Below, piece by piece: positions 8,298-20,251 of a stretch of 20,746 bases of DNA. The number at the start of each line of letters is the position of its first letter. The first letter of the stretch is position 1. Below the pieces are notes generated by a model that saw only the letters and a list, made by a program, of their open reading frames with translations, ran no database searches and had not been told where the DNA came from. The stretch is from IMG/VR virus record IMGVR_UViG_3300018080_000678, positions 1-20,746 of that record; one strand, 5' to 3'. Both the position numbers and the translations under genes were made by a program. The stretch is from a virus.

Positions 8298-9746
8298 ATG
8301 GAACATTTTTATGACGGGCAAATAAGAAAATATATCGTACAGATTATTAGAATGTTTAATAATCTTTCATACAAAACTGGAAATGGAAATATCATTCAGA
8401 TTCCGGTAATGTATGGAGATATGACTAGACAAGTTGCGAGTATTATAAAAAATAATTCTGAAAATACCGTTCCCACTGCTCCTAGAATGGCTGTTTATAT
8501 AACAGGTCTAGAAATTGATAGAGAACGAGCTAGCGATGCTTCGTATGTAAACAAAAAACATATAAGAGAACGTGCTTATGATGAAGAAGGAAAAGAGTAC
8601 CTAACAGAACAAGGAAAAAACTATACTATAGAACGAATCATGCCTACACCATACAAGTTATCTATAAACGTAGATGTATGGTCAACGACCACTGATCAAA
8701 AACTTCAAATACTAGAACAAATACTCATGCTATTTAACCCTAGTCTAGAAATACAGACTAGTGATAACTATTTGGACTGGACTAGTTTGAGTGTGGTATA
8801 TTTAGAATCTATTCAGTTTAGTTCTAGATCAATACCTACAGGAACAGAGACTGAAATAGATGTAGCTACTCTGAGTTTTTCCACTCCTATATTCATATCC
8901 ATGCCTGCTAAAGTAAAAAAACTAGGAGTAATAAAAAACATAATTACGCAAGTATTGAATGTCAATTATGATACAGATACAGAACTTTCTAGCTCTGCAT
9001 TCTATACAGGATCACTATCCAAAGATATAAAGCAAGAATTAAACATACCAAATCTAGATGAATCTTTAGATATCAGTGAGTATGTTACTAGGTCGTTCAG
9101 AGACTGGGAACATTCATTTGGATACGACTTACTAGTATTGAATAACACAGCAAAACTTGTAAAAGACGGAATGATTTTAGACAAGACTTGGACTGAGTTC
9201 TTTCTAGAAATATCTGAAAATATAAATCAAGGAATAGCTTATATATTTTTAAAAAAACCCAATTTTGAAAATAATATAATAGGAAAGATCGAAATAAATC
9301 CCGCAGATGAACATCAACTATTAATAAAATTTGATCTAGACACTGTTCCTTCTAACACCGTATTAAACGGACCAGTAAGAAATCTTAACCAATTATCAAC
9401 AATAGACTATGCGATAAATCCACAAGATTTTAACCCTACAGATATAAAAATACCCGGACTAAGACTATTATTACTAGATAGCATAGGAAGTGACTCTAAC
9501 ACAGACGGAGCAGACGCATGGAAAAATTCTGATGGCACAGATTTAGTAGTTGATAAAAACAGCATCATAGAGTGGGACGGTTTTGAATGGAGAACTATAC
9601 TAGTCCCAAGGCTAACTGATGCCGGAAATATATTCTTAACTAACTTAAAAACCGGACTTCAAATATTCTGGGATGGAAAGGACTGGCTTTTGAGTATTGA
9701 CGGAGAATATAGAAAAGGTGACTGGAGTATCAGGATATATGGATGA
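8298..9746 (+). CDS. 15: Tail terminator / sheath stabiliser (gp15-like) with long C-terminal extension
   Basis: Caps the finished tail and connects it to the neck. Residues 1-225 match the gp15 pattern: FYDGQIRKYIVQIIRMFNNL, then IIQIPVMYGD, PRMAVYITGLEIDRE, MPTPYKLSINVDVWS, QILEQILMLFNPSLEI and a final strand VATLSFSTPIFI. T4 gp15 is 272 aa; here 482, so about 250 residues are added. The extension ends in two short motifs, IIEWDGFEWRTI and IFWDGKDWLLSI, of the DGxxW type also seen in the sheath and gp14. It follows gp14 as in T4. AAGAGA precedes the ATG. The stop is TGA immediately followed in frame by TAG; the ATG of the Nudix gene overlaps the end by 8 bases, implying coupled translation. 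Confidence 0.8.
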   Translation: MEHFYDGQIRKYIVQIIRMFNNLSYKTGNGNIIQIPVMYGDMTRQVASIIKNNSENTVPTAPRMAVYITGLEIDRERASDASYVNKKHIRERAYDEEGKEYLTEQGKNYTIERIMPTPYKLSINVDVWSTTTDQKLQILEQILMLFNPSLEIQTSDNYLDWTSLSVVYLESIQFSSRSIPTGTETEIDVATLSFSTPIFISMPAKVKKLGVIKNIITQVLNVNYDTDTELSSSAFYTGSLSKDIKQELNIPNLDESLDISEYVTRSFRDWEHSFGYDLLVLNNTAKLVKDGMILDKTWTEFFLEISENINQGIAYIFLKKPNFENNIIGKIEINPADEHQLLIKFDLDTVPSNTVLNGPVRNLNQLSTIDYAINPQDFNPTDIKIPGLRLLLLDSIGSDSNTDGADAWKNSDGTDLVVDKNSIIEWDGFEWRTILVPRLTDAGNIFLTNLKTGLQIFWDGKDWLLSIDGEYRKGDWSIRIYG

Positions 9747-10194
9747 TAGCCAAGTTATATGCAGCGGTGCATTATTTTATTCACTCAAAACTAAAAGACT
9801 TCTTTTATTAAGAAGATCTCCGGGAAAATCAGGAGATACGTGGGGAATAGTAAGCGGTACCAACAATCAAGATGAGATTCCTTACAATGCTTTATTGCGA
9901 GAAATAAATGAAGAAATTGGTTTTGTCCCTGATATTATAAAAACAATACCTTTGGAATTATTTATTTCCGATGACTGCAGGTTTTTATTTCATACTTATT
10001 TAATAGTAGTGGAACAAGAATTTATACCTAATTTAAATCATGAAAACAACGGATACGCATGGACTAGCTTTTTAAAATGGCCTCATCCATTACATCGCGG
10101 ACTAAAAAATACACTGCAGAACAGAATAATAATAAGCAAGTTAAAAACTATTTTTAAAATGATAGACTTTTTTTATGATAATCAAGATATTTAA
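9739..10194 (+). CDS. Nudix hydrolase
   Basis: A 151-aa pyrophosphohydrolase of the Nudix superfamily. The Nudix box is complete: G at the start of GTNNQDE, seven residues, then REINEEIGF, fitting GX5EX7REUXEEXGU with all the metal-binding glutamates. It is preceded by TWGIVSG, the usual strand before the box. The substrate cannot be read from the sequence; family members cleave nucleoside diphosphates linked to another moiety, such as NADH, ADP-ribose, (d)NTPs or mRNA caps. Start chosen at ATG 9739, overlapping the gp15 stop, rather than the longer TTG-initiated frame from 9697. Its 3' end (TAA at 10192-10194) overlaps the convergent gene's stop by 4 bases (TTAA). Being last in a neck/tail operon suggests late expression, unusual for a nucleotide-metabolism enzyme. 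Confidence 0.88.
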   Translation: MDDSQVICSGALFYSLKTKRLLLLRRSPGKSGDTWGIVSGTNNQDEIPYNALLREINEEIGFVPDIIKTIPLELFISDDCRFLFHTYLIVVEQEFIPNLNHENNGYAWTSFLKWPHPLHRGLKNTLQNRIIISKLKTIFKMIDFFYDNQDI

Positions 10195-10583
10195 TCAGTG
10201 GGAACTAAAATTAATATATTTGCACTAGAATCATCTTGTATTTCCCAAGTATAACGAATGTTATTAAAATCTATAACAACTCGATTAGTAATTTTTCTAA
10301 TTCTGGTTTCTTCTCCGGTTGTAATAGAATATCCTAGTATCACGAATTCATCAGGGCCAGGAATTTCTTTGTTGACTAGTGTACAAGAACCTTGATTTCC
10401 ACTTTTATCCTGGCGATCATTTATTATAAATTTGGTTTCAGACTGTTGTCTAATTATAATACCAGCATCTGATAAAGGGTTATTACCTACACGAACCAAG
10501 ACTGTAAATCTTTGTTCGTTTAATAAATCTTGTCCTTCTTCAGCAGTAACACCAAAGAATCTTTTGTTTACTGGGCGTCCCAT
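10191..10583 (-). CDS. Small MGRPxNKR-type protein, probably virion-associated
   Basis: A 130-aa protein starting MGRPVNKRFFG. Similar short proteins with this opening occur in marine T4-like phages beside structural genes; I recognise the pattern but not a function. The body looks all-beta: FTVLVRVGN, GIIIRQQSETKFIINDR, SCTLVNKEIPGPDEFVILGY, then RIRKITNRVVIDFNNIRYTW and a final ILILVPTD. No signal peptide or membrane segment. A late-type box (CATAAATA, 10589-10596) ends 5 bases before the ATG and no Shine-Dalgarno is visible, so the mRNA may be leaderless or nearly so. The gene converges with the Nudix gene, stop codons overlapping. Confidence 0.65.
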   Translation of the reverse strand: MGRPVNKRFFGVTAEEGQDLLNEQRFTVLVRVGNNPLSDAGIIIRQQSETKFIINDRQDKSGNQGSCTLVNKEIPGPDEFVILGYSITTGEETRIRKITNRVVIDFNNIRYTWEIQDDSSANILILVPTD

Positions 10584-10624: not shown

Positions 10625-11488
10625 TTACATAGTCTTTATAATCTTTTCATACTGTCTATCACTCCATACTATATCTCTGATGTAATCAGGGTGTTTTTTT
10701 AGTATAGATTTCACCTGATCTCTGTTATCTAGATGTGATTTTTGTGCTAAAATTATGTCAACAAACTCATCAAATGTCGGATAATCTCTAGGTCTTATAA
10801 CTTTATTTTTTGAGTTCTGGTATATTTCTGATTTTTTATCAGTGCTTACATCGCCAAATCTAGATGGAAGTTTATTTTGTTTATCTAATTTTATTACTTG
10901 CTGGGGTTTATATCTGATGTAATCTTGTTGCACACGCTCAGGATTACTAGATATCCAAACAGCTTTAATTCCCGAAGTGTCTATATCCCCAATAAATAGT
11001 GCTTGAGGCTCGCCTAGATCATATAAATAACCTGCTAGTTCTGGACGATCACTAGAAGCGATATATTCGTTTTCATCATGCGAATAACTGTCACGTTGTT
11101 GTTTTTTAGAATCTTCACGTTCTTTTTCATTATGAAATATACCTGACATTCCACCCTGTACAGTAAAAGATCCATTTGGCCAAACGGGAATATCTAGATC
11201 AGAAACTCTAGCATGTATTTCTAGCACGTAACTACCAAATTCTTTTGCAGTTTTTAATAATGGAGTAACAAACAATCCCTTGGGATTATTATTAAATTCA
11301 TAACTATAACGCCTGCTGGCTCTCATATCTCCTGTTAAGCCGTATTTTATTGCTGCTATAAGAAAATTATAATCACTAGTGCCGTGGTAAACTACCACTG
11401 ATTCATTATCTCTTAGAGGTTCATTTATATTACCAGGAGTTATTATCTTGACTTCGTTTATTATTTTACTGAATTCTGAATATCTCAT
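10625..11488 (-). CDS. ADP-ribosyltransferase-like protein with putative capsid-targeting N-terminus
   Basis: A 287-aa protein. Residues 32-37 (VVYHGT), a GL at 50-51, GLFVT at 71-75 and TAKEFGSYVLEIHARV at 80-94 follow the YHGT...GL...G(I/L)(Y/F)xT...AxxFG succession of ADP-ribosyltransferase-fold proteins; EYIA or PELA near 141-152 could supply the later Glu. SGIKAVWI near 178 is a typical following strand. If active it would transfer ADP-ribose from NAD+ to a target, as T4 Alt/ModA/ModB do on host RNA polymerase and other proteins. The N-terminus MRYSEFSKIINE resembles T4 capsid-targeting sequences (MKTYQEFIAE) and ends in an INE tripeptide of the gp21-cleavage type, as expected for a protein packaged in the head and injected. 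The C-terminal 80 residues are helical and Lys-rich. Start at ATG 11488 has no good ribosome-binding site; 12 bases separate it from the preceding stop. Fold call moderate, activity unproven. Confidence 0.55.
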   Translation of the reverse strand: MRYSEFSKIINEVKIITPGNINEPLRDNESVVVYHGTSDYNFLIAAIKYGLTGDMRASRRYSYEFNNNPKGLFVTPLLKTAKEFGSYVLEIHARVSDLDIPVWPNGSFTVQGGMSGIFHNEKEREDSKKQQRDSYSHDENEYIASSDRPELAGYLYDLGEPQALFIGDIDTSGIKAVWISSNPERVQQDYIRYKPQQVIKLDKQNKLPSRFGDVSTDKKSEIYQNSKNKVIRPRDYPTFDEFVDIILAQKSHLDNRDQVKSILKKHPDYIRDIVWSDRQYEKIIKTM

Positions 11489-11500
11489 AGGTTTATTTTA

Positions 11501-11917
11501 CTAGATACTGTCATCAGGTTGATATTTTTCCGGGTGAGAGTGTATTTCATCTAAAAATTCATCAAGTAAAAGATCATGAAATTCATTCTTTTGTTGTTCA
11601 CCTAACATACCATATATATCATCTAGAGAAAGACCTGACACAAACTCTTCAAATATAATCTCCCATATGTGTTTTTGCAAGAAAGATACTACCTTACTTT
11701 CTGCTCGCTGTCCCAACAGAGACAAAAGATCGTTTAAATCTTTATCACTATACTCTTCCATCATTTCTACCGCTAGATCGTTATCATACTTGAATGCTGC
11801 CTCTTCTTCTTCATAATCAGGTTCTATTAAGTTGTAATCAGGCAAGTCTCCTTCTGTTATAACTTTTCTGGATTCTAAGCGTTTTAATACCTTTATCATT
11901 TTTTTTATTTCACTCAT
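11501..11917 (-). CDS. Small acidic protein of unknown function
   Basis: A 138-aa acidic helical protein I do not recognise. The first 20 residues are basic and helical (MSEIKKMIKVLKRLESRK), followed by VITE and then a strongly acidic stretch (EPDYEEEEAAF). The remainder forms amphipathic helices (DLNDLLSLLGQRAESKVVSF, EIIFEEFVSGLSL, DIYGMLGEQQKNEFHDLLL). The ITE tripeptide at about residue 22 could be a gp21 protease site, giving a basic propeptide and an acidic mature protein; this is inference. AGGAG lies 7 bases before the ATG and a late box at 11949-11956, so expression looks strong and late. It ends in TAG, 12 bases before the ADP-ribosyltransferase-like gene, with which it forms an operon; a partner or chaperone role for that protein is possible but unsupported by motifs. 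Confidence 0.7.
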   Translation of the reverse strand: MSEIKKMIKVLKRLESRKVITEGDLPDYNLIEPDYEEEEAAFKYDNDLAVEMMEEYSDKDLNDLLSLLGQRAESKVVSFLQKHIWEIIFEEFVSGLSLDDIYGMLGEQQKNEFHDLLLDEFLDEIHSHPEKYQPDDSI

Positions 11918-11948
11918 AATTAACTCCTGTTTAAGAAATATATATTAA

Positions 11949-11956
11949 TATTTATC
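11949..11956 (-). promoter_or_regulatory. T4-type late promoter box GATAAATA for the acidic/ART-like operon
   Basis: The minus strand reads GATAAATA, 31 bases upstream of the ATG at 11917, with AGGAG in the leader. It makes a divergent pair with the plus-strand ACTAAATA at 11965-11972, only 8 bases apart, so the two accessory operons share one compact control region of 80 bases. Confidence 0.65.
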
Positions 11957-11964
11957 AATATACA

Positions 11965-11972
11965 ACTAAATA
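11965..11972 (+). promoter_or_regulatory. T4-type late promoter box ACTAAATA for the amidoligase operon
   Basis: ACTAAATAC lies 25 bases before the ATG at 11998, with GGAG at 11989-11992 as ribosome-binding site. A TATAAT lies a few bases downstream of the box but has no recognisable -35 partner, so the late box is the better candidate. The layout repeats that of the gp14 operon (ACTAAATAC, then GGAG, then start). Confidence 0.55.
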
Positions 11973-11997
11973 CTAGAGTATAATTAGCGGAGTTTCT

Positions 11998-13896
11998 ATG
12001 TTATTAAATCAAATAATTGAAGGTATCAAGATGGGAGGTTCACGGATATCTTCCGCACCAAAAAAAGACTACACCGTGGGTTTTGAATTTGAGGTAGCAG
12101 TGGACAGAAATGAATTATCCGCTGGTGAAGATAATCTTTCAGATTTTATAGAAGAATGGCACGAATTTCGAAGGATCACAGAATTTGATGAATGGTTTAA
12201 CAACATCTTATATCACAGAGAAAAACGAAAATTACTCATAGAAGAAGGTATAGAACCTAAATACGGAAGACCGGATATAATCGAAATTGCTAAACATGAA
12301 TTTATGATTAGAATATCTAAATATGATAGTAAAATCATTGATTCAGCAAAAAAATTTTTAGAAGATTCAGAGTCAGAAAAAAAATACAGTGATGAACAAC
12401 TAGTTAAACTAGTAACTTTATTTAGATATTTTAAAAATGGTGATTTTTATAGTCAACTAGATGATTATGTAGTTAGCATAGACAGTATAAAATCAAAAAT
12501 CTCCGTGTTTGCTGACAAGCACCGCAAATCGTTAGATGATTCTAAAAATGATATTATACAACATATAAAGGAAATTATCAAGAAAACTATTTATTTTAAT
12601 GAAGATGACATAGACCGAGACTCATATGATCAAGAAGATTATATATATGATAAAGCAAGAAATATCATCGATATAGTAGAACTAACTACCGTTGACGATA
12701 TTATAAAACATTTTGATACTGATCGTGAAGAACTAGAAGAGTTATTTGAATATGAATGGGGCGAATTTGATTCTGAAGAAATGATGGATGCGTTCAGAGA
12801 ACAGTCTTATAGCAACGAGTCCGCCATAAGTTATGTAGCAAGTGAGCTAAGAGAAATCGTAGCTGAATTTGTGATAGAATCCGAAGAATCTGATTACAGT
12901 AGATGGACCGTAGGCACTGACGGTACACAAGGAGTAGATGTAGAATTTAGATCACCTGTACTAAACCTAGAAAGAGCAGAACAAGCCATTGATGATATAT
13001 TTGAGTTTATACGCGATGATGAATTAATTGAAACAAACACACGATGTGGTCTTCATATAAACATAGGCACATGGAGCCACGATCAAATAAATGAGATAGA
13101 CTGGCTTAAATTTCATATAATATCAAATCAAAGAAGATTTCTAGATGAGTTTGGTAGACTAGATAATGACTTCACAACAGATAAACTTCCTGAAATAATA
13201 GATATATTAGAATCTAATAATATACATGATTACATAGATAGTATACCTGAGATAAATAATAGGTTGTTTAGACATTCTGAAAAATATTCTGCTATAAACA
13301 TATCTAAATTAAAAACACACGGTTATATAGAGCTTAGATCACTAGGTGGAAACTATGAAGTGCGCGATGATCAAGTCAAACAATATATAAGAATGATGCT
13401 TCACTTTTTAGACATTGCCAGCGATCCATACGCATATAAAAAAGAATATGTAAAAAAACTAACTATTATAACTGGCAATAATATATCAAAACAAAATAAC
13501 AAAATTATTTCGCCTACTGAATTTTTCAATAAATTTTTTCAGACAACAGACTCTGTACGACTTCTGTCTAGAATCCATGGTGTGATAGAAAGAACTATTA
13601 CTGATAATATACCTCAACACTTGCATCGTTTGAAAGAAATCAGGAGCATAGACTATCTATCCGAACATTACTCAACTGAGTCTAGAAGATTGTTATACTC
13701 CATACTACTAAATCCTAGATTTATCAATGAATTAGAAGAGACAAATTATATCAGTGATGCAGAGAAACTACTTGGATTAATTAAGTCACGCATAGAACAA
13801 GTTCCAAGAAATCTATTCTTAAAAGACATGAGAACTATATTAAACAAGATCGTAAACAAAGAATATAAATCTAATCTATCGAACAAGGAACAATAA
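11998..13896 (+). CDS. Predicted amidoligase, copy 1, with putative capsid-targeting N-terminus
   Basis: A 632-aa protein of the putative amidoligase (carboxylate-amine ligase, glutamine-synthetase-like fold) family. Seen motifs: DYTVGFEFEV (24-33, first metal/ATP glutamates), WTVGTDG followed by VDVEFRSPVL (303-322), TRCGLHINIG (348-357) and KYSAIN ... GYIELRSLGG (to about 451). Together these form the expected Glu/Glu, Asp/Glu-Arg, His and Glu-Arg active-site set, so the enzyme looks intact. Members are predicted to form amide bonds with ATP; the substrate here is unknown. The region between residues 60 and 290 is a long acidic helical insertion, and the last 150 residues form a helical tail. 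The N-terminus MLLNQIIEGIKMG places an IIE tripeptide at residues 6-8, of gp21-protease type. GGAG precedes the ATG. The second copy starts 2 bases after its stop. Confidence 0.75.
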   Translation: MLLNQIIEGIKMGGSRISSAPKKDYTVGFEFEVAVDRNELSAGEDNLSDFIEEWHEFRRITEFDEWFNNILYHREKRKLLIEEGIEPKYGRPDIIEIAKHEFMIRISKYDSKIIDSAKKFLEDSESEKKYSDEQLVKLVTLFRYFKNGDFYSQLDDYVVSIDSIKSKISVFADKHRKSLDDSKNDIIQHIKEIIKKTIYFNEDDIDRDSYDQEDYIYDKARNIIDIVELTTVDDIIKHFDTDREELEELFEYEWGEFDSEEMMDAFREQSYSNESAISYVASELREIVAEFVIESEESDYSRWTVGTDGTQGVDVEFRSPVLNLERAEQAIDDIFEFIRDDELIETNTRCGLHINIGTWSHDQINEIDWLKFHIISNQRRFLDEFGRLDNDFTTDKLPEIIDILESNNIHDYIDSIPEINNRLFRHSEKYSAINISKLKTHGYIELRSLGGNYEVRDDQVKQYIRMMLHFLDIASDPYAYKKEYVKKLTIITGNNISKQNNKIISPTEFFNKFFQTTDSVRLLSRIHGVIERTITDNIPQHLHRLKEIRSIDYLSEHYSTESRRLLYSILLNPRFINELEETNYISDAEKLLGLIKSRIEQVPRNLFLKDMRTILNKIVNKEYKSNLSNKEQ

Positions 13897-13898
13897 AG

Positions 13899-15686
13899 AT
13901 GAGACTGAAGCAAATACTAGAAGGGATCAGAATGGGACATTCTGATCTTATGCAAAAAACTGACAAAGATTATACTGTGGGATTCGAGTTTGAAGTTGCT
14001 ACTTATATTAGCGAGGATGAAAATCCGAGTTATGATAATCTAATACGTGACAGGGAATTTCATGAAAAATGGTTTAACGAAACTCAACTAGAATCTACTA
14101 TAGATAGAATACGTGATGAACATATAGAGCCTGTTTACGGTCGTCCTGACTCTGAAGAGATAATAGAATTTGTAATCAAAGACAGAAAAAGAAAATACAA
14201 CGAATCAATGCGAAAAGAAATAAATGATTTTTTGGATTTCATAGAAAAAGATCTCAATATCTTAAAAGATATTAATATTCTGTACAAGTTAATGAAATAC
14301 TATTATATAATTTTAGCGTCGCATGAAGAAAAACATATTATGATAAGGGTCGATGATGATTATGTAAAACGAATTACAAGATCAAACCATGAAAAATTCA
14401 ATGGACAAGAAAGTGTATTTAAAAATATGAATAAAGCTTTTATAAAAACTATAAGAAGTGCTATCAATATTGATATAAGTGAAATAGATGACACTATTGA
14501 CATAGAAGATTATGCGTATGATGAAAATTATCAAGTTCAGTTTATTCCGTATCTACAATCATTAACAGATATTATCAAAGTGTTTGACTCGCATCAAATA
14601 CAAGATGAAGAAGTTACCATAGATTATGATGAGTATGTACAGGAATATGTAGAAGAAAATTCCATATCTCCTGTAAAATATGTAGTAAATGAGTTAGACT
14701 CAATAATGAGTAGACCTGTTATTGAAAGTGAAGAATCTGATTATGAGATGTGGACTGTAGGAACTGACGGGACTGCGGGAGTAGATGTAGAATTTAGATC
14801 CCCGGTTTTAAGAATACAAGAAGCAGAAAAAGCACTAAAGGACTCATTAGATTTAATAAGCAACGACAGTTTAATTGAAACAAACACAAATTGCGGTCTT
14901 CACATAAACATAGGAACATGGAATAGAAACGAAATAAATGATGTTGATTGGTTAAAGTTTTATGTTATTTCCGGACAAAGTCGCGCACTAAAAGAATTTG
15001 GAAGATCTAATAACTATTTTGCAGTTGATCAACTTCCCGGTATAATCCGATCACTAGAAACAAATAAATTAAACGATTACATAGATAACATACCTTCACT
15101 CAACGAGTTGGCAATATCTTTGAGTGAAAAGTATTCGGCGATAAATTTATCTAAACTACCCACACACGGATATATAGAACTTAGATCGTTAGGGGGAAAT
15201 TATGAAGATAAATATGAATGGATTCAACAATATATTAGAATGATGACAAGAATCTTAGATATAGCTAGTGACTATAGTGCTTATCGACAAACATACCTGA
15301 AAAAACTAATGACTATCATGAGTTCATCAGGAAAAAATCAAACACAAAAACGAGAATTGTCATTAGGAAAAATCATAGGCATTCATTTTGATCTAGATAA
15401 CCACACATCGAATACAAGTTTTTATGGAGACAACTACGCAATTATATCATACCTACCTGATGTTATCGAAGATTCTAACAATATAGGAACAGTATCTTAC
15501 ATCAAAAACAATTACAATCTGTCGATGAGAAGAGAACTTATAAGTGCCATCAATGCAAATATACACCATACACATGAAATGAGAAAATTAGTAGACGCCA
15601 TAACAACAAAATATGGCAGCAATCCTGAAATAATGTTCTTACGAGATATACTAAGATCTGTAAATATACCTGAAAATAATTCGTAA
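13899..15686 (+). CDS. Predicted amidoligase, copy 2, tandem paralogue of copy 1
   Basis: A 595-aa paralogue of the preceding gene along its whole length: MRLKQILEGIRMG (against MLLNQIIEGIKMG), DYTVGFEFEV, EPVYGRPDSEE (against EPKYGRPDIIE), VIESEESDYEMWTVGTDGT, VDVEFRSPVL, NCGLHINIGTW, KYSAINLSKL, GYIELRSLGGNYE and a related C-terminal helical tail ending in a MFLRDIL-like segment. All predicted catalytic residues are retained in both copies, so neither looks dead. The acidic helical insertion (about 60-280) is the most diverged part and may set substrate or partner. ILE at residues 6-8 again fits a gp21-type cleavage. Starts 2 bases after copy 1, its ribosome-binding site (AAGGA) lying inside copy 1's 3' end, so the two are translated as a unit. 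A weak terminator follows. Confidence 0.75.
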   Translation: MRLKQILEGIRMGHSDLMQKTDKDYTVGFEFEVATYISEDENPSYDNLIRDREFHEKWFNETQLESTIDRIRDEHIEPVYGRPDSEEIIEFVIKDRKRKYNESMRKEINDFLDFIEKDLNILKDINILYKLMKYYYIILASHEEKHIMIRVDDDYVKRITRSNHEKFNGQESVFKNMNKAFIKTIRSAINIDISEIDDTIDIEDYAYDENYQVQFIPYLQSLTDIIKVFDSHQIQDEEVTIDYDEYVQEYVEENSISPVKYVVNELDSIMSRPVIESEESDYEMWTVGTDGTAGVDVEFRSPVLRIQEAEKALKDSLDLISNDSLIETNTNCGLHINIGTWNRNEINDVDWLKFYVISGQSRALKEFGRSNNYFAVDQLPGIIRSLETNKLNDYIDNIPSLNELAISLSEKYSAINLSKLPTHGYIELRSLGGNYEDKYEWIQQYIRMMTRILDIASDYSAYRQTYLKKLMTIMSSSGKNQTQKRELSLGKIIGIHFDLDNHTSNTSFYGDNYAIISYLPDVIEDSNNIGTVSYIKNNYNLSMRRELISAINANIHHTHEMRKLVDAITTKYGSNPEIMFLRDILRSVNIPENNS

Positions 15687-15724: not shown

Positions 15725-15744
15725 AATCAGGTTGCTGATTTTTT
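15725..15744 (+). terminator. Weak rho-independent terminator after the amidoligase operon
   Basis: A 6-bp stem (AATCAG / CTGATT) with a GTTG loop followed by TTTT, 39 bases after the copy 2 stop. It overlaps the last codons of the convergent endonuclease gene. The stem is short; some read-through is likely. Confidence 0.45.
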
Positions 15745-17235
15745 CCAAACATAAACAGTGTTACCGCAATCTCCTATCTTATACAAACCCAAAGACTTTG
15801 CAAGTTCTTCTTCAGTATCACCAGTTGCTAGTGTATTTTTAAGAAGATTTGATTTAGTATAAGTTGATCTATGGTATCTCTTCAAAAAATCCGTATAAGC
15901 ATACCCGTATGAAGTTTGTTTTAAAAACTGCATTCCAATTTTTTGGTACATCTTTCCTGTGCCCCATCTCATATCACAGTAACTAATAATTGATTCAGGA
16001 TCGTATTTTCTAATAAAATGAGTAAATAATTTTGAGGCTCCTCCAACTACCGTGTTCTTACTAGAATATCGAATTATTTCATATTGATAATTTTTATTAT
16101 ATCTAGGCTTTCCAAATGTCATCAACGCCAGCAAGTCATTTTCATTGTATAACCCTAGATTGATACTAGAACTAGCATAGCCTTGGATATGGGTCGTTTC
16201 TAAAAACATTCTAGAATCACCGCTAGACACTTCTTTTAGTATCAGTTTTCTTGCATAATATCGCTTAGACTGATTTAGAATATTTGATAATCTGGATTTC
16301 ACAATATCTTTTTTATAAATCCATTCATCTTCAAAGATCGTTATTAACCGATACCCTTTATCGTTAGCTAATTTCATCTTATTATAATGATAATCAGCAT
16401 TCTTTCCCTGAGCAGAACTGTGCCAGTATAATCCACAATATTCAATGGCTATTTTTAATTCCGGGAGTACAATATCCAGTTCAAAAGGATTGATCGTAGT
16501 TTTATCGTTATTTAAAATAAGCACCGACGGAAATGTATGCTTGATAAAATTAGTAAGTTCCTGCTCCGCTTTACTACTATAAGACGGTATAGTTGGGTTG
16601 CAAGCTTTGCAAACTGGAATATGCCCGTTATCAAGGTATGTTTCAAATTCTAGCCCGCAATCTAAGCAAGAAAAGTTATAATATTGTTGATTGCTTACTC
16701 CGTAATAGTCTGTTACAGGAGTTAACATTTTTATTCCAAATGTTTTCAATTTGTTTATTAATTTAGCATAACTGTGCTCCAGGAGTGTTAGCTTAGGTTT
16801 TTTTATATTTTTTTTATTTTTTAAATAATACTGTTTGTGTTTAGACTTTGCTTTTTCAGTCTGCCCGGCGTTAATTACTCCATATTTTTTTAAATTGGTT
16901 GATTCTCGTTTTGAATTAATCTGTTGTTTTTCGCTGTCAGATAACTCAGACTTTGACTTTGAAACTGCATTTGATACTGATTTTTTAGCACACAAACATC
17001 GACTCGCAGGCCCGCAAAACTTGTAACCTTCTGTAATTGATTTAAACTTTTTTGTATTACCGTAGTCACAGACTACACGTTCATTATACAAAGCATCGTA
17101 GATACGTTGAGAAAAATTAGTTGATTCTGGTGAATTCTGAATTACCCACTCAGATAATTCATGGTCATTGGCAATAGCTTGACTAATTTTACGAGGATTG
17201 GTAGTTTCAATGACTCTTATTATTTTATCTTTCAT
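15727..17235 (-). CDS. Vsr-like homing endonuclease, free-standing
   Basis: A 502-aa site-specific endonuclease of the phage Vsr-like (PD-(D/E)XK) homing type. Order: an N-terminal region with Cys-rich KFCGPASRCLCAKK; a DNA-binding helical unit ESTNLKKYGVINAGQTEKAK, of the 'KTxxEKYGVxN' kind typical of these enzymes; a zinc-ribbon-like FSCLDCGLEFE ... PVCKACNP; the nuclease core SKAEQELTNFI ... FELDIVLPELKIAIEYCGLY, WHSS, then GYRLITIFEDEWIYKKDIV; and a C-terminal acetyltransferase-like region (MTFGKPRYN ... EIIRYSSKNTVVGGASKLF). ELDI ... IEYCG carries the expected acidic residues. ATG at 17235 is preferred to the TTG frame from 17262 because a strong promoter overlaps that segment. It sits beside the gp23 terminator as a separate transcription unit, the usual place for mobile intronless endonucleases near conserved virion genes. 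Ends in TGA. Confidence 0.82.
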   Translation of the reverse strand: MKDKIIRVIETTNPRKISQAIANDHELSEWVIQNSPESTNFSQRIYDALYNERVVCDYGNTKKFKSITEGYKFCGPASRCLCAKKSVSNAVSKSKSELSDSEKQQINSKRESTNLKKYGVINAGQTEKAKSKHKQYYLKNKKNIKKPKLTLLEHSYAKLINKLKTFGIKMLTPVTDYYGVSNQQYYNFSCLDCGLEFETYLDNGHIPVCKACNPTIPSYSSKAEQELTNFIKHTFPSVLILNNDKTTINPFELDIVLPELKIAIEYCGLYWHSSAQGKNADYHYNKMKLANDKGYRLITIFEDEWIYKKDIVKSRLSNILNQSKRYYARKLILKEVSSGDSRMFLETTHIQGYASSSINLGLYNENDLLALMTFGKPRYNKNYQYEIIRYSSKNTVVGGASKLFTHFIRKYDPESIISYCDMRWGTGKMYQKIGMQFLKQTSYGYAYTDFLKRYHRSTYTKSNLLKNTLATGDTEEELAKSLGLYKIGDCGNTVYVWKKSAT

Positions 17236-17241
17236 AAAACT

Positions 17242-17270
17242 ATTATACACTAGAAGTAACAAATTGTCAT
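17242..17270 (-). promoter_or_regulatory. Sigma70-type promoter for the endonuclease
   Basis: The minus strand has ATGACA (17265-17270; 5 of 6 to TTGACA), a 17-base spacer and a perfect TATAAT (17242-17247). The predicted start of transcription, about 7 bases downstream, falls at or next to the ATG at 17235, and there is no Shine-Dalgarno, so the mRNA may be leaderless. No late-type TAAATA box is present, so the gene is probably early or constitutive, unlike its neighbours. Confidence 0.65.
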
Positions 17271-17330: not shown

Positions 17331-18509
17331 TTACTGGAAGCTTACGTTTCCGTTGTTGATTGCAACTTTGCCTAGATAGTCTGCTGCGTTACCTAGAGAA
17401 CTTGCAGTGTTGTTTAGCTCGACATAACCGTATCGAGTCATGAAGCTAACAACTGGTTCAAAGGTAGCAGGATCTAGTACTGTACCGCTGCTCATTAGTG
17501 GAATATAAGGACAGTAGAATGCGGCTGCATCACTTTCACTAGAACCTTTATAACCGATAAGAACAGGAGCATTATCTGCGGAATATGTATTTACATAAAC
17601 CTTCATAGCATTGTTTAGAGTTCCTACGAACTTGGTGTTAGTAGGTGCCTCAAAAGTACCTTCTGTAGTACGTGCAAATGCTGATGTAGTTGCACTCTGT
17701 AGAATAGTAAGAGTAAACGGACTAACAACTGCCCAGTTACCTGCACCTCTACGAGTACGCTGAGCGATCAAGTTAGCAACGCGGTTGATCTGGACTGCTA
17801 GAGCAGCATGTTCATCACCGACGAATGTAGCAGTACCGCTAACAGAAGCCTGGTCATAGGTTTCAATAGCAGTGCCAGCTAGATTGCTTAGACTTGAAAG
17901 TACTTCTTGGTCAATTTCAGCAGTGATCTCTTGTGCAAGAGCAGCCATGATTTCTGCTTCTACATCGATACCGTGCTGTGATTGAGCATCTTGTGCTGCT
18001 TCAAAAGTCCAACGTGCTGATAGCTTTCTGGTCTTAGCTTCAACAGTTTGCTTCATGATTTGAATGCTTAGTCTGTTTCCGCCTTGTCCTTCTAGTGCTG
18101 CTGTAGCTGCTGCTTTAGCAGTAGCTGGGTCACCAGAATAAGCTTCTGCAATCTTGAACGGGCTTAGAGCCTCTTCACCTGCAGTTGCACCTGATGAGCC
18201 TGTACCGGCAGTATCAGAGTAACGAACACGCAAGGTGTGTATCTGTGACACGGGACCAGTCATTGGTTGTACACCGACTAGTTCGTTTGCAATAACAGTG
18301 GGCATAACACGACGAATAACGGGTAGAATAACTCGGTTTAGAGTTGCAACGTTACCAGCTGATGTTGAGCCTACAGTAGCACTTTCTGATAGTAGGTGCT
18401 TTCGTGTATTCTCTAGAGTTGTTTCCATAACGGTTTTCTTGTTACCGTTTAGGCCTTCTAGAAGTGCTTGTTTGGCTTCACGCCAACGACTTTCTAGTAA
18501 TTCTGACAT
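17331..18509 (-). CDS. 23: Major capsid protein (gp23)
   Basis: Shell-forming capsid protein, 392 aa, clearly shorter than T4 gp23 (521) and nearer the compact MCPs of divergent T4-like phages. Diagnostic is ILPVIRRVMPTVIANELVGV followed by QPMTGPVSQIHTLRVRYSD (residues about 61-100), the conserved gp23 N-arm/P-domain junction. Later segments include RKLSARWTFEAAQDAQ, EIMAALAQEITAEIDQEVL, NRVANLIAQRTRRGAGNW and the C-terminal VSFMTRYGYVEL. A probable gp21 cleavage site is LSE at residues 40-42, which would remove the N-terminal helix (MSELLESRWREAKQALLEGL) and leave SATVGSTSAG as the mature N-terminus. AAGGAG lies about 8 bases before the ATG. It follows gp22 by 12 bases and is ended by the strong terminator at 17285-17312. 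Confidence 0.96.
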   Translation of the reverse strand: MSELLESRWREAKQALLEGLNGNKKTVMETTLENTRKHLLSESATVGSTSAGNVATLNRVILPVIRRVMPTVIANELVGVQPMTGPVSQIHTLRVRYSDTAGTGSSGATAGEEALSPFKIAEAYSGDPATAKAAATAALEGQGGNRLSIQIMKQTVEAKTRKLSARWTFEAAQDAQSQHGIDVEAEIMAALAQEITAEIDQEVLSSLSNLAGTAIETYDQASVSGTATFVGDEHAALAVQINRVANLIAQRTRRGAGNWAVVSPFTLTILQSATTSAFARTTEGTFEAPTNTKFVGTLNNAMKVYVNTYSADNAPVLIGYKGSSESDAAAFYCPYIPLMSSGTVLDPATFEPVVSFMTRYGYVELNNTASSLGNAADYLGKVAINNGNVSFQ

Positions 18510-18521
18510 TGTAAAATCTCC

Positions 18522-19616
18522 TTAATTTAGTCCTGCAAGACGACAAATTTCAATAACATTGTTGTCATTGCTTTGTAGTTTGTGTGTTTTTGTATCTCTG
18601 TTGCCTGTAATTTCTTTGCCTTCGGTTAGAGTTGCCTTGGTTTTTGCTGGAGTTTTACCGTCAATAACAGCCGGTAAATATTTTTCAAACGCAGTTGCTA
18701 ACTTACTTGTTTGAACACTTTCCAGTAGATCTGTCATGATTTCTTTCTGGGATTTAGACAGAGGTGAAATCAATTGATTCAAAGTCTTTTGTCGCTCGAT
18801 GGATTCTTTCAGAGTTTCTTTATCTCTTTTATGTTTCTCTGCAAGCTTTACAGACTTTGCGCTTTGAACTTTTGCTTCTGATAATTGCTTTTCTCGTTTC
18901 CTTAAAAGTTTTGTTAATTTTGCAATTTCACTTTTTTCATTCAAGTAACTACCAGCATATTCTAAAGCAAAGCTTTCAAATATTTTTCTACCAAAATCAT
19001 TCTTTCTAGAAATCTCTATGTCTTCTTTTAGTTGACTGATTTCAGTTTTTAATGCTTTTTCAACTGTTTCTGCAATTAAAATCGCACTTTGTTTAATGAA
19101 TTTCTTTTTGGTACTTTCTATGAGTTTTTTTCCTTCACTTACTAATTTAACTTTGGTTTCAATTATATCTTTTTTATCTTTGTGAAAATCTGTAATTTCT
19201 TCTGCTAGTGATTCTACAACAAATTCTTCAACTTTAGAGAATGATTCTGCTATTTTCTTTTGATCTCTGTGTAATTCTGCAACTTCGTTAGTTAGTTGTT
19301 TAACAACAAAATTCTTTAATAGATTTTGATGTTCGCGAAGTTTTATAGCATATTGTGCTTTTTGTTCCGCTAGTTGCTTTCTATCATCTCGAAATTCTTC
19401 TATTTCAGAATGTAGACGATCAGTAATCATCTCATTAATAGCTTCTGCCATGATAGATTTATCATATTCATACTTTTTTGCAAACTCTTCTCTAAGTTCA
19501 GCAGCGACCGCTCTTTTATTTTCTTTTAGCTTTTGGTCCCATGCTTCTTGAATTTCTTGACGCACTTGCTCAGAAATTGCTTCATTTTCAAAAAGTTGTG
19601 TTAGTGCATCTTTCAT
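18522..19616 (-). CDS. 22: Prohead core scaffold protein (gp22)
   Basis: Internal scaffold around which gp23 assembles, later degraded by gp21. The 364-aa protein is very rich in Lys, Glu and Ala and almost entirely helical. Between residues 45 and 240 it holds several diverged repeats of a helical unit, for example AINEMITDRLHSEIEEFRDD, FVVKQLTNEVAELHRDQKK, FVVESLAEEITDFHKDKKD and ETVEKALKTEISQLKEDIE, consistent with coiled-coil packing. The C-terminal part (LISPLSKSQKEIMTDLLESV ... AFEKYLPAVI) is a conserved-looking gp22 segment. Its place between protease gp21 and capsid gp23, with short gaps (14 and 12 bases), is canonical. ISE near residue 15 could be a gp21 cleavage site. A ribosome-binding site (AGGAGG) lies just before the ATG. 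Confidence 0.92.
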   Translation of the reverse strand: MKDALTQLFENEAISEQVRQEIQEAWDQKLKENKRAVAAELREEFAKKYEYDKSIMAEAINEMITDRLHSEIEEFRDDRKQLAEQKAQYAIKLREHQNLLKNFVVKQLTNEVAELHRDQKKIAESFSKVEEFVVESLAEEITDFHKDKKDIIETKVKLVSEGKKLIESTKKKFIKQSAILIAETVEKALKTEISQLKEDIEISRKNDFGRKIFESFALEYAGSYLNEKSEIAKLTKLLRKREKQLSEAKVQSAKSVKLAEKHKRDKETLKESIERQKTLNQLISPLSKSQKEIMTDLLESVQTSKLATAFEKYLPAVIDGKTPAKTKATLTEGKEITGNRDTKTHKLQSNDNNVIEICRLAGLN

Positions 19617-19630
19617 TATGTCCTCCTGAA

Positions 19631-20251
19631 TTATCGGAGATTGTTGATTATATTTACCAACGATTCCTTAAGATACTTTTCTGCCTTTTTATCGTGCCTT
19701 ACCATATTTGCCAATTCATATGCCTTATATCCTTTTTTAGAATTCAATACTTGTTCGTAAATAGGTGTAGGATAAGCTTCCGGTGCGCTAGGTTGAGCTA
19801 CAATATCTACAGTAACAATCTGAAAATCTGAAACTGTGCCTTGACCATCTTCGCTTACATTACCGCTACCCCGAGACGATACGCCCAGTTTAACTCCGTT
19901 TTCTATCATTACTTTTATAATCTGACCCATAGGTGTGGGAATTATCTTTAATTTCCCACACCCGTTAGATCCTTCCATCCACATTTTTTCAATCGTATGG
20001 CTGACACGTTCTAGATTTATATTAAGTCCTTCTGGATGATCAACTTCTCCGAGAACAGACATTCCTTTTGTTATTTGCTCGTTTAGTGTATTAACGGCAT
20101 TTGATATCTCTCTTATAGGGTAAACTCGCTGATTTGCATTTCGCTTATCACCTTGTATGAATATACCTTTTAAGCAAAGATTTTTGTTATCTTCTTGTTC
20201 AACAACTATATTAGCTTGTTGAAAAGTAAGTTGTTCTCGTAGAGTAGTCAT
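19631..20251 (-). CDS. 21: Prohead maturation protease (gp21)
   Basis: Serine protease that cleaves the scaffold, the capsid protein and internal proteins after (I/L)xE during head maturation. 206 aa, close to T4 gp21 (212). Catalytic residues are visible: His in GEVDHPEG (about residue 73) and Ser in GVSSRGSGNV (about residue 125), the pattern of the U9/herpesvirus-assemblin-like fold; TVDIVAQPSAPEAY near 149-162 is the conserved following strand and loop. The C-terminal helix (KKAEKYLKESLVNIINNL) may be the inhibitory propeptide. Preceded by AAGGT and starting 6 bases after the acidic protein's stop, it is in the 21-22-23 operon. Its specificity is relevant to the (I/L)xE-bearing accessory proteins of this window. 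Confidence 0.95.
   Translation of the reverse strand: MTTLREQLTFQQANIVVEQEDNKNLCLKGIFIQGDKRNANQRVYPIREISNAVNTLNEQITKGMSVLGEVDHPEGLNINLERVSHTIEKMWMEGSNGCGKLKIIPTPMGQIIKVMIENGVKLGVSSRGSGNVSEDGQGTVSDFQIVTVDIVAQPSAPEAYPTPIYEQVLNSKKGYKAYELANMVRHDKKAEKYLKESLVNIINNLR

What the first reader, a model, noticed from the sequence alone, without database searches (positions are those of the whole stretch)
10625..15686. Cassette of four accessory proteins with capsid-targeting-like N-termini: candidate injected effectors
Four neighbouring accessory proteins each have an (I/L)xE tripeptide near the N-terminus: SKIINE (ART-like), KVITE (acidic), NQIIEG and KQILEG (amidoligases). T4 packages its internal proteins and Alt using short N-terminal sequences (such as MKTYQEFIAE) that gp21 cleaves after such a tripeptide, and a gp21 gene with catalytic residues lies in this window. 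The genes have late-type promoters and are embedded among head/tail genes. Together they suggest enzymes packaged in the head and delivered with DNA. Such tripeptides also occur by chance, so this is a hypothesis.
Basis: inference. Interest (0 to 1): 0.75.

Follow-up and report, generated by a model that had tools for sequence, protein, structure and literature searches.

The report
Tagged enzymes for phage head packaging
A giant virus of bacteria carries an inserted set of extra genes whose proteins begin with the kind of short address label that phage T4 uses to load proteins into its head and inject them with its DNA; relatives put such a label on about twenty unrelated proteins each, so these are probably enzymes injected at the start of infection.

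Summary
The tripeptides are really in the sequence. Taken alone they are weak evidence: about a quarter of control proteins have one that early. Comparison makes the case much stronger. The two amidoligases start MLLNQIIE|G and MRLKQILE|G. All five phage amidoligases with a readable N-terminus, from four viruses, have [ILF]-x-E at this place, four of them as an octapeptide with E at residue 8. In two of those viruses the octapeptide M[KR]-hydrophobic-x-x-[LIF]-x-E heads 21 proteins (Agrobacterium phage Atu_ph07) and 24 proteins (a 342-kb contig) where under one is expected, with no such excess for D, K, N or S. The 24 fall into 18 unrelated families. In Atu_ph07 it heads a tandem array of ADP-ribosyltransferase-like proteins inside a gene cluster rich in virion proteins by published mass spectrometry. 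The window has an intact gp21 protease gene. The cassette plus a homing endonuclease is a 6.7-kb insertion next to gp23 that relatives lack. Verdict: capsid-targeting tags are well supported for the amidoligases, likely for the ART-like protein, weak for the acidic one. The late-promoter claim fails. Packaging, cleavage and injection remain inferences. It is a new variant of the T4 internal-protein system.

The parts
11998..12021 (+). Predicted capsid-targeting octapeptide MLLNQIIE of amidoligase 1; predicted gp21 cut after E8
   Evidence: Alignment of five phage amidoligases; relaxed octapeptide background 0.005 per position; SD GCGGAG upstream
11998..13896 (+). Amidoligase 1 (632 aa)
   Evidence: Pfam Amidoligase_2 E=7e-6, above its cut-off; GFEFE, VEFRSP, HINIG and YIELR..GG motifs conserved
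13899..13922 (+). Predicted capsid-targeting octapeptide MRLKQILE of amidoligase 2
   Evidence: Matches the strict octapeptide; SD AAGGA
13899..15686 (+). Amidoligase 2 (595 aa), tandem paralogue of amidoligase 1, about 40% identical
   Evidence: Pfam Amidoligase_2 E=0.016 and PHROG 7469 'amidoligase enzyme' E=3e-5
11453..11488 (-). Predicted capsid-targeting peptide MRYSEFSKIINE of the ART-like protein
   Evidence: Same head as Phosso MRYNEFSKESLDHLSE; no Shine-Dalgarno sequence and no homologue to confirm the start
10625..11488 (-). ART-like protein (287 aa), possible ADP-ribosyltransferase (YHGT...GLFVT)
   Evidence: Weak pairwise match (E=8e-4) to an Atu_ph07 protein that itself matches ART-PolyVal at E=4e-4, below that model's cut-off; no Pfam match of its own; single-sequence model unusable
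11852..11917 (-). Possible 22-residue propeptide ending KVITE of the acidic protein
   Evidence: Tripeptide present; no class enrichment: weak
11501..11917 (-). Acidic protein (138 aa, pI 4.3)
   Evidence: no family match above chance
15727..17262 (-). Homing endonuclease next to the cassette, within the same insertion
   Evidence: PHROG 3339 homing endonuclease E=2.5e-100; Pseudomonas phage Cassandra also has a homing endonuclease after its major capsid gene
10191..10583 (-). 130-aa conserved protein (MGRP[LI]NKR) that normally follows the major capsid gene; marks the far edge of the insertion
   Evidence: 34 homologous ORFs in 80 relatives, 0.15-1.8 kb from the MCP end
17331..18509 (-). Major capsid protein gp23; predicted propeptide ends LLSE|SATVG
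   Evidence: Pfam Gp23 E=4e-98; cleavage site inferred
18522..19616 (-). gp22-like core/scaffold protein
   Evidence: PHROG 10922 E=4e-78 (no function given); position between gp21 and gp23; N-terminus MKDALTQLFE
19631..20251 (-). gp21 prohead protease, the predicted processing enzyme
   Evidence: Peptidase_S77 E=1.8e-26; His and Ser motifs

Best explanation
The cassette is a recently inserted cargo block whose proteins (the two amidoligases most surely, the ART-like protein probably, the acidic protein possibly) carry T4-type capsid-targeting sequences. In the assembling prohead the short N-terminal peptide would bind the gp22-type core and bring the protein inside; gp21 then cuts after [IL]-x-E, releasing the mature enzyme into the head (GIKMG... 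and GIRMG... for the amidoligases); it enters the host with the DNA. There the amidoligases would use ATP to form amide bonds on a host target (protein tails, peptides or a small molecule) and the ART-like protein would attach ADP-ribose, as T4 Alt does, to redirect or disarm the host before phage genes are expressed. Shown here: tag sequences, their conservation and enrichment, the intact protease gene, catalytic motifs of the amidoligases, the insertion. Inferred: packaging, cleavage, injection, targets.
For: (1) Five phage amidoligases from four viruses have ILE, IIE, LTE, LFE or IFE at the same place before the catalytic domain, four of them with E at residue 8 (sources). (2) M[KR]-hydrophobic-x-x-[LIF]-x-E heads 21 Atu_ph07 proteins (0.3-0.6 expected) and 24 proteins of the 342-kb contig G001 (0.24-0.28 expected); the same pattern with D, K, N or S stays at 0-3. 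E is spiked at position 8: 22 and 24 proteins, against 1-2 and 3-6 at positions 7 and 9. (3) The 24 G001 proteins fall into 18 families unrelated outside the tag, the Atu_ph07 ones into 10. (4) In eight ART-like paralogues of Atu_ph07, M1, W3, Q5, L6 and E8 are 5 of only 17 invariant columns. (5) A related pattern finds IPI and IPIII in T4; Bacillus phage G, which has no gp21 match, has none of the strict type. (6) That array, gp54-63 by my mapping of the paper's numbering, lies in CDS 31-76, where 29 gene products were found in purified virions though only two had been predicted structural (PMC6102473). (7) gp21 is present with its catalytic motifs. (8) T4 rule: gp21 cuts after L/I-x-E, CTS propeptides are 10-19 residues and 10 suffice (PMC9026906).
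Against: No virion proteomics exists for this virus, and the table naming the individual virion proteins of Atu_ph07 was not readable. The strict tag is not enriched in Cassandra, Phosso or the half of phage CBB that was read, and only mildly in larger contigs of the window's own relatives (E 5 against 0-3 for other residues; 11 against 1-5 for the wider pattern). Amidoligase 1 lacks the K/R at position 2. The acidic protein fits poorly and the ART-like start is not supported by an SD. The consensus was drawn up after looking at the same sequences.
Confidence: 0.68

Rival explanations
1. Internal but not injected: the tagged proteins join the prohead core and act during assembly, for example modifying or cross-linking capsid or core proteins, or forming an inner body, and have no role in the new host.
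For: N-termini ending [IL]xE also occur on core and head proteins of relatives (gp21, gp22 and the small portal-gp21 proteins). phAPEC6, another T4-type jumbo phage, has an inner-body rod.
Against: The cargo is accessory: absent from the 80 nearest MCP-bearing loci and highly variable between viruses, unlike an assembly factor. In T4 proteins of this kind (IPI-III, Alt) are injected (PMC9026906; PMC12373910).
Confidence: 0.14
2. Chance or shared ancestry: the tripeptides are ordinary N-terminal sequence. The amidoligase similarity is descent, the other two are coincidence, and the enzymes act in the cell that makes them.
For: [IL]xE ending at residues 6-21 occurs in about a quarter of Atu_ph07 proteins. 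Two of the four proteins are paralogues, so the cassette gives at most three independent cases.
Against: The octapeptide background is 0.0006-0.005. The excess is specific to E at position 8 and is found on unrelated proteins. Between the tag and the catalytic domain the amidoligases have diverged while the tag persists.
Confidence: 0.13
3. The N-terminal peptide is a real recurrent signal of these phages but for something other than head packaging, such as membrane association, degradation or binding to a replication compartment.
For: In the two relatives where the tag is strongest no direct virion data could be read here; some tagged genes lie far from head genes.
Against: The requirement for Glu after [LIF]-x matches the published gp21 cleavage rule, all viruses whose genome could be tested have gp21, and the tagged Atu_ph07 array lies in a virion-protein cluster.
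Confidence: 0.05

Closest known systems
Phage T4 internal proteins IPI, IPII, IPIII with their capsid-targeting sequence (MKTYQEFIAE)
   Same: Short N-terminal peptide starting M[KR], hydrophobic positions, ends in [IL]-x-E; recurs on otherwise unrelated accessory proteins; phage encodes gp21 and a T4-type head.
   Different: Octapeptide (E8) of different wording rather than decapeptide; cargo here are large enzymes rather than small inhibitors; about 20 tagged proteins per genome in two relatives against three IPs in T4.
Phage T4 Alt
   Same: A possible ADP-ribosyltransferase with an N-terminal propeptide in a T4-type phage.
   Different: The window protein shows no detectable similarity to known ARTs by Pfam or NCBIfam, and its fold could not be modelled.
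Amidoligase_2 (PF12224), glutamate-cysteine-ligase-like ATP-dependent amidoligases
   Same: GFEFE, E..SP, HINIG and ExR..GG motifs conserved; matches Pfam and PHROG amidoligase profiles.
   Different: Preceded by a predicted capsid-targeting peptide; no annotation in the sources read places this family in phage heads; substrate unknown.
Head-packaged ARTs, Nudix and polyvalent proteins in myoviruses (PMC9503650)
   Same: Same idea of enzymes packaged with DNA and encoded near head genes.
   Different: That survey inferred packaging from fusions to head proteins and gene neighbourhood; in the passages read here it did not use an N-terminal tag, and the word Agrobacterium does not occur in it.

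Membership tests
T4-type capsid-targeted internal proteins | Short N-terminal propeptide ending in [LI]-x-E | tested here: met
   All four proteins; E8 for the amidoligases, E12 for the ART-like, E22 for the acidic, the last beyond the 10-19 residues of T4
T4-type capsid-targeted internal proteins | Same peptide shared by otherwise unrelated proteins of one phage | tested here: inconclusive
   Met in relatives Atu_ph07 and G001; in the window itself the only near-identical pair are paralogues
T4-type capsid-targeted internal proteins | Phage encodes gp21 protease with catalytic His and Ser | tested here: met
T4-type capsid-targeted internal proteins | Protein present in the mature virion with new N-terminus | not testable with these tools
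   Only indirect: the tagged array of Atu_ph07 lies in a virion-protein cluster
T4-type capsid-targeted internal proteins | Delivered into the host | not testable with these tools
   No experiment for these phages
Amidoligase_2 | Match to the family profile | tested here: met
   Amidoligase 1 26.5 bits, cut-off 22; amidoligase 2 15.5 bits, below the cut-off, but 40% identical to amidoligase 1; the relative in L072 31.6 bits
Amidoligase_2 | Conserved catalytic motifs | tested here: met
   G28 F29 E30 F31 E32, E298, S301-P302, H335, N337, E427, R429 invariant in three phage proteins; their catalytic role is from knowledge of the family, not tested
ADP-ribosyltransferase (window 10625-11488) | Profile or fold match | tested here: inconclusive
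   No Pfam or NCBIfam match; weak pairwise link to an ART-PolyVal-like protein; model pLDDT 39
ADP-ribosyltransferase (Atu_ph07 array) | ART fold with conserved Arg and Glu | tested here: inconclusive
   R39 and E235 invariant in eight paralogues; VIA-align best 2aua Z 6.6, then chiefly ART-superfamily chains at Z 3.0-3.4; Foldseek none at E<=0.001

The most novel reading that the evidence does not exclude
T4-superfamily jumbo phages have turned the capsid-targeting sequence into a general, modular loading system: a genome-specific octapeptide code places some twenty unrelated proteins per virus, among them tandem ADP-ribosyltransferases, amidoligases, LRR-like and metallopeptidase-like proteins, into the head for injection, so that injected effector sets can be read directly from genome sequence.
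Probability: 0.5. Interest if true: 0.8.

Novelty: new variant of a known kind. Interest (0 to 1): 0.62.

Why it matters
Most jumbo-phage genes have no known function, and which proteins enter the host with the DNA is known for few phages. If the octapeptide is a packaging and cleavage tag, injected effector sets can be listed from sequence in phages with a T4-type gp21, amidoligases become a new candidate class of injected enzyme, and the idea can be tested on virion mass-spectrometry data that already exist for Atu_ph07 by looking for peptides that begin right after E8.

Tried and rejected
Late promoters: TATAAATA and TATAAAT are not in excess. Tripeptide alone as evidence: rejected, too frequent. 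A second tag class (MS..LRK..ILNE) for the acidic protein: not enriched over residue controls. ART fold of the window protein by single-sequence AlphaFold: pLDDT 39, unusable. Foldseek of the Atu_ph07 array model: nothing at E<=0.001; only the second look by VIA-align points to ART-superfamily chains. Close relatives of the cassette proteins: none for amidoligase 2 in viral contigs by single sequence, none for the ART-like protein in phages or viral contigs, none for the amidoligase profile in genome contigs or in five large contigs of the clade; in phages only Atu_ph07 matches the amidoligases. PHROG 6170 (weak ART-like hit) is not found in the T4-type relatives. Phage CBB as a labelled test of tag against virion presence: its virion list was read and 203 of its 378 kb, but this part has only one strict-tag protein, so it cannot test the rule. 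phAPEC6 is not in the collection. The T4 stretch first put in the gp21 alignment was the wrong coordinates; T4 gp21 was read. One tblastn search was wasted on a peptide typed only to reach a control record.
Full report
What is in the window. The record is a 20.7-kb virus fragment of a T4-superfamily jumbo phage. Its gp21 is closest, among annotated phages, to Sinorhizobium phage Phosso, Pseudomonas phages of the PA5oct group and Agrobacterium phage Atu_ph07. On the minus strand lie gp21 (Peptidase_S77, E=1.8e-26), a gp22-like core gene and gp23. The cassette (10625-15686) holds an ART-like protein and an acidic protein on the minus strand and two tandem amidoligases on the plus strand, followed by a homing endonuclease.

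Check of the observation. The four N-termini are as stated. Shine-Dalgarno sequences support the amidoligase and acidic starts, but not the ART-like start. The tripeptide by itself is common: in Atu_ph07 13% of proteins have [IL]xE ending at residues 6-13 and 11% at 14-21. Inside the window it nevertheless marks the cassette and the head-core genes: four of four cassette genes, gp21, gp22 and gp23 have it by residue 22, and one of the ten other ORFs does. By hand this gives p of about 0.0004 for the seven and 0.005 for the cassette alone against the ten; the grouping was made after the fact. The late-promoter claim fails: TATAAATA is found twice against four expected.

Conservation in homologues. 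Atu_ph07 has one amidoligase, MRWQDISSKKLTELKMN...; IMG/VR gave MKVTDIFEGIPMK... (L070) and MKLDVLFERSMS... (L072), and a fragment without N-terminus (L069). Aligned with the two window proteins, all five have [ILF]-x-E at the same place, four of them with E at residue 8. The start of L070 is my choice: the longest ORF begins ten residues earlier. The stretch between the tag and the catalytic domain is divergent.

The same tag on unrelated proteins. I fetched Atu_ph07 (490 kb), the contig of L072 (342 kb, here G001, which has a gp21 44% identical to the window's), Phosso and Cassandra, called genes, and counted M[KR]-hydrophobic-x-x-[LIF]-x-E at N-termini. Atu_ph07 has 21 against 0.3-0.6 expected and G001 24 against 0.24-0.28; with D, K, N or S in place of E the counts are 0-3. 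The count by position is spiked at E8. The 24 G001 proteins form 18 families with no similarity beyond the first 14 residues; the Atu_ph07 ones form ten, of which the largest is eleven ART-like paralogues. Across 35 such proteins aligned together only M1 and E8 are invariant; E8 is part of the selection rule, so this is descriptive. A related, looser pattern recovers T4 IPI and IPIII among four T4 hits. The strict tag is not enriched in Cassandra, Phosso, 220 kb of phage G, or the 203 kb of CBB that was read, and is modest in five larger contigs of the window's own relatives (E 5 against 0-3; 11 against 1-5 for the wider pattern). Each phage group thus seems to have its own wording. The gene calls are my own simple ones, so counts are approximate; the consensus was derived from the same genomes, but the residue and position controls share that bias and stay low.

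Link to virions. Atu_ph07 has a ten-gene tandem run (41844-50592) of ART-like proteins, nine starting M[KR]W.QL.E and one MRLFQLLE. In eight aligned members M1, W3, Q5, L6 and E8 are five of 17 invariant columns, with the candidate catalytic R39 and E235 among the rest. An AlphaFold model (pLDDT 69.5) is matched by VIA-align best to 2aua (Z 6.6), then chiefly to ART-superfamily chains at Z 3.0-3.4; Foldseek found nothing significant. The Atu_ph07 paper reports 131 virion proteins by mass spectrometry, with CDS 31-76 contributing 29 although only two had been predicted structural (PMC6102473). From the paper's gp2 (ClpX) and gp4-5 (topoisomerases) and the record's feature order, the array is gp54-63, inside that cluster. 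Which of its members were detected is in a supplement that could not be read, so this is strong but indirect.

The insertion. More than 600 IMG/VR loci encode an MCP related to the window's; the best 80, 81-90% identical, were kept. In the 34 homologue calls for the 130-aa protein (10191-10583) it lies soon after the MCP: where both are visible the distance is 0.15-1.8 kb, often with no or one small gene between. In L207 MCP, an MGRP-type gene, a Nudix-like gene and the gp15-type gene follow as in the window. In the window MCP and the 130-aa gene are 6.7 kb apart, filled by the endonuclease and the cassette. No homologue of the ART-like, acidic or amidoligase proteins occurs in these 80 loci. 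The cassette is therefore accessory cargo at a head-gene junction, next to a homing endonuclease, which fits an effector block better than a conserved assembly factor.

Mechanism proposed. T4 internal proteins enter the prohead core by a short N-terminal sequence and are cut by gp21 after L/I-x-E; ten residues suffice (PMC9026906). Some are injected and act on host defence or transcription; Ip1-3 share only the leader sequence (PMC12373910). I propose the same route here: tag, core, gp21 cut, release, injection. The amidoligases keep the motifs of glutamate-cysteine-ligase-like enzymes and would form amide bonds on a host target. The target is unknown and the enzymatic step is inferred from family knowledge.

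Weak points. The ART-like protein is only loosely linked to ARTs. The acidic protein has a long, atypical propeptide. No protein of this virus has been seen in a virion. Head-packaged ARTs have been proposed before from gene context (PMC9503650), so the concept is known; in the PMC library searched and the passages read I found no description of an octapeptide tag in jumbo phages or of tagged amidoligases. That is a limited search, not proof of absence.

Noticed in passing
L006:41844-50592 (Atu_ph07; also L125): Run of ten paralogous ART-like genes, all with an E8 octapeptide, one of them (490 aa) with two LYRGM/IYRGM motifs and so apparently two ART-like domains; an eleventh copy at 304780-305556.
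   Followed up: partly
L040:11860-12612 and 12593-13282 (Cassandra): Two adjacent proteins with HELRHALD-type metallopeptidase motifs and N-termini MRLNEINLIE and MKILEFNLTE: candidate packaged metallopeptidases of PA5oct-like phages.
   Followed up: partly
L083:3975-4796, L085:13888-14628, L085:14625-15356 (G001): Three related proteins that look leucine-rich-repeat-like and carry the octapeptide; two lie a few kb from gp21.
   Followed up: no
G006 39549-39794 and G005 14207-14452 (L209, L235): Small 81-aa proteins MKISELLE|TATAGATSAGNIAT / MKIREIFE|TATAGATSSANIAT whose sequence after the tag copies the region after the predicted gp23 cleavage site.
   Followed up: no
window 10191-10583 and 34 homologous ORFs in L128-L207: A conserved MGRP[LI]NKR protein of unknown function lies next to the major capsid gene and heads a row of likely fibre or decoration genes in relatives.
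   Followed up: partly
L005:27250-27471, L003:21866-22099, L004:22361-22603, CBB_253: Small proteins encoded just after the portal gene with different N-termini, all reaching [IL/F]xE before a similar (G/S)(Y/F)..P sequence: likely core proteins cut by gp21.
   Followed up: partly
window 9697-10194: Nudix hydrolase gene overlapping the gp15-type gene; Nudix genes sit beside gp15-type genes in CBB and Cassandra too.
   Followed up: no
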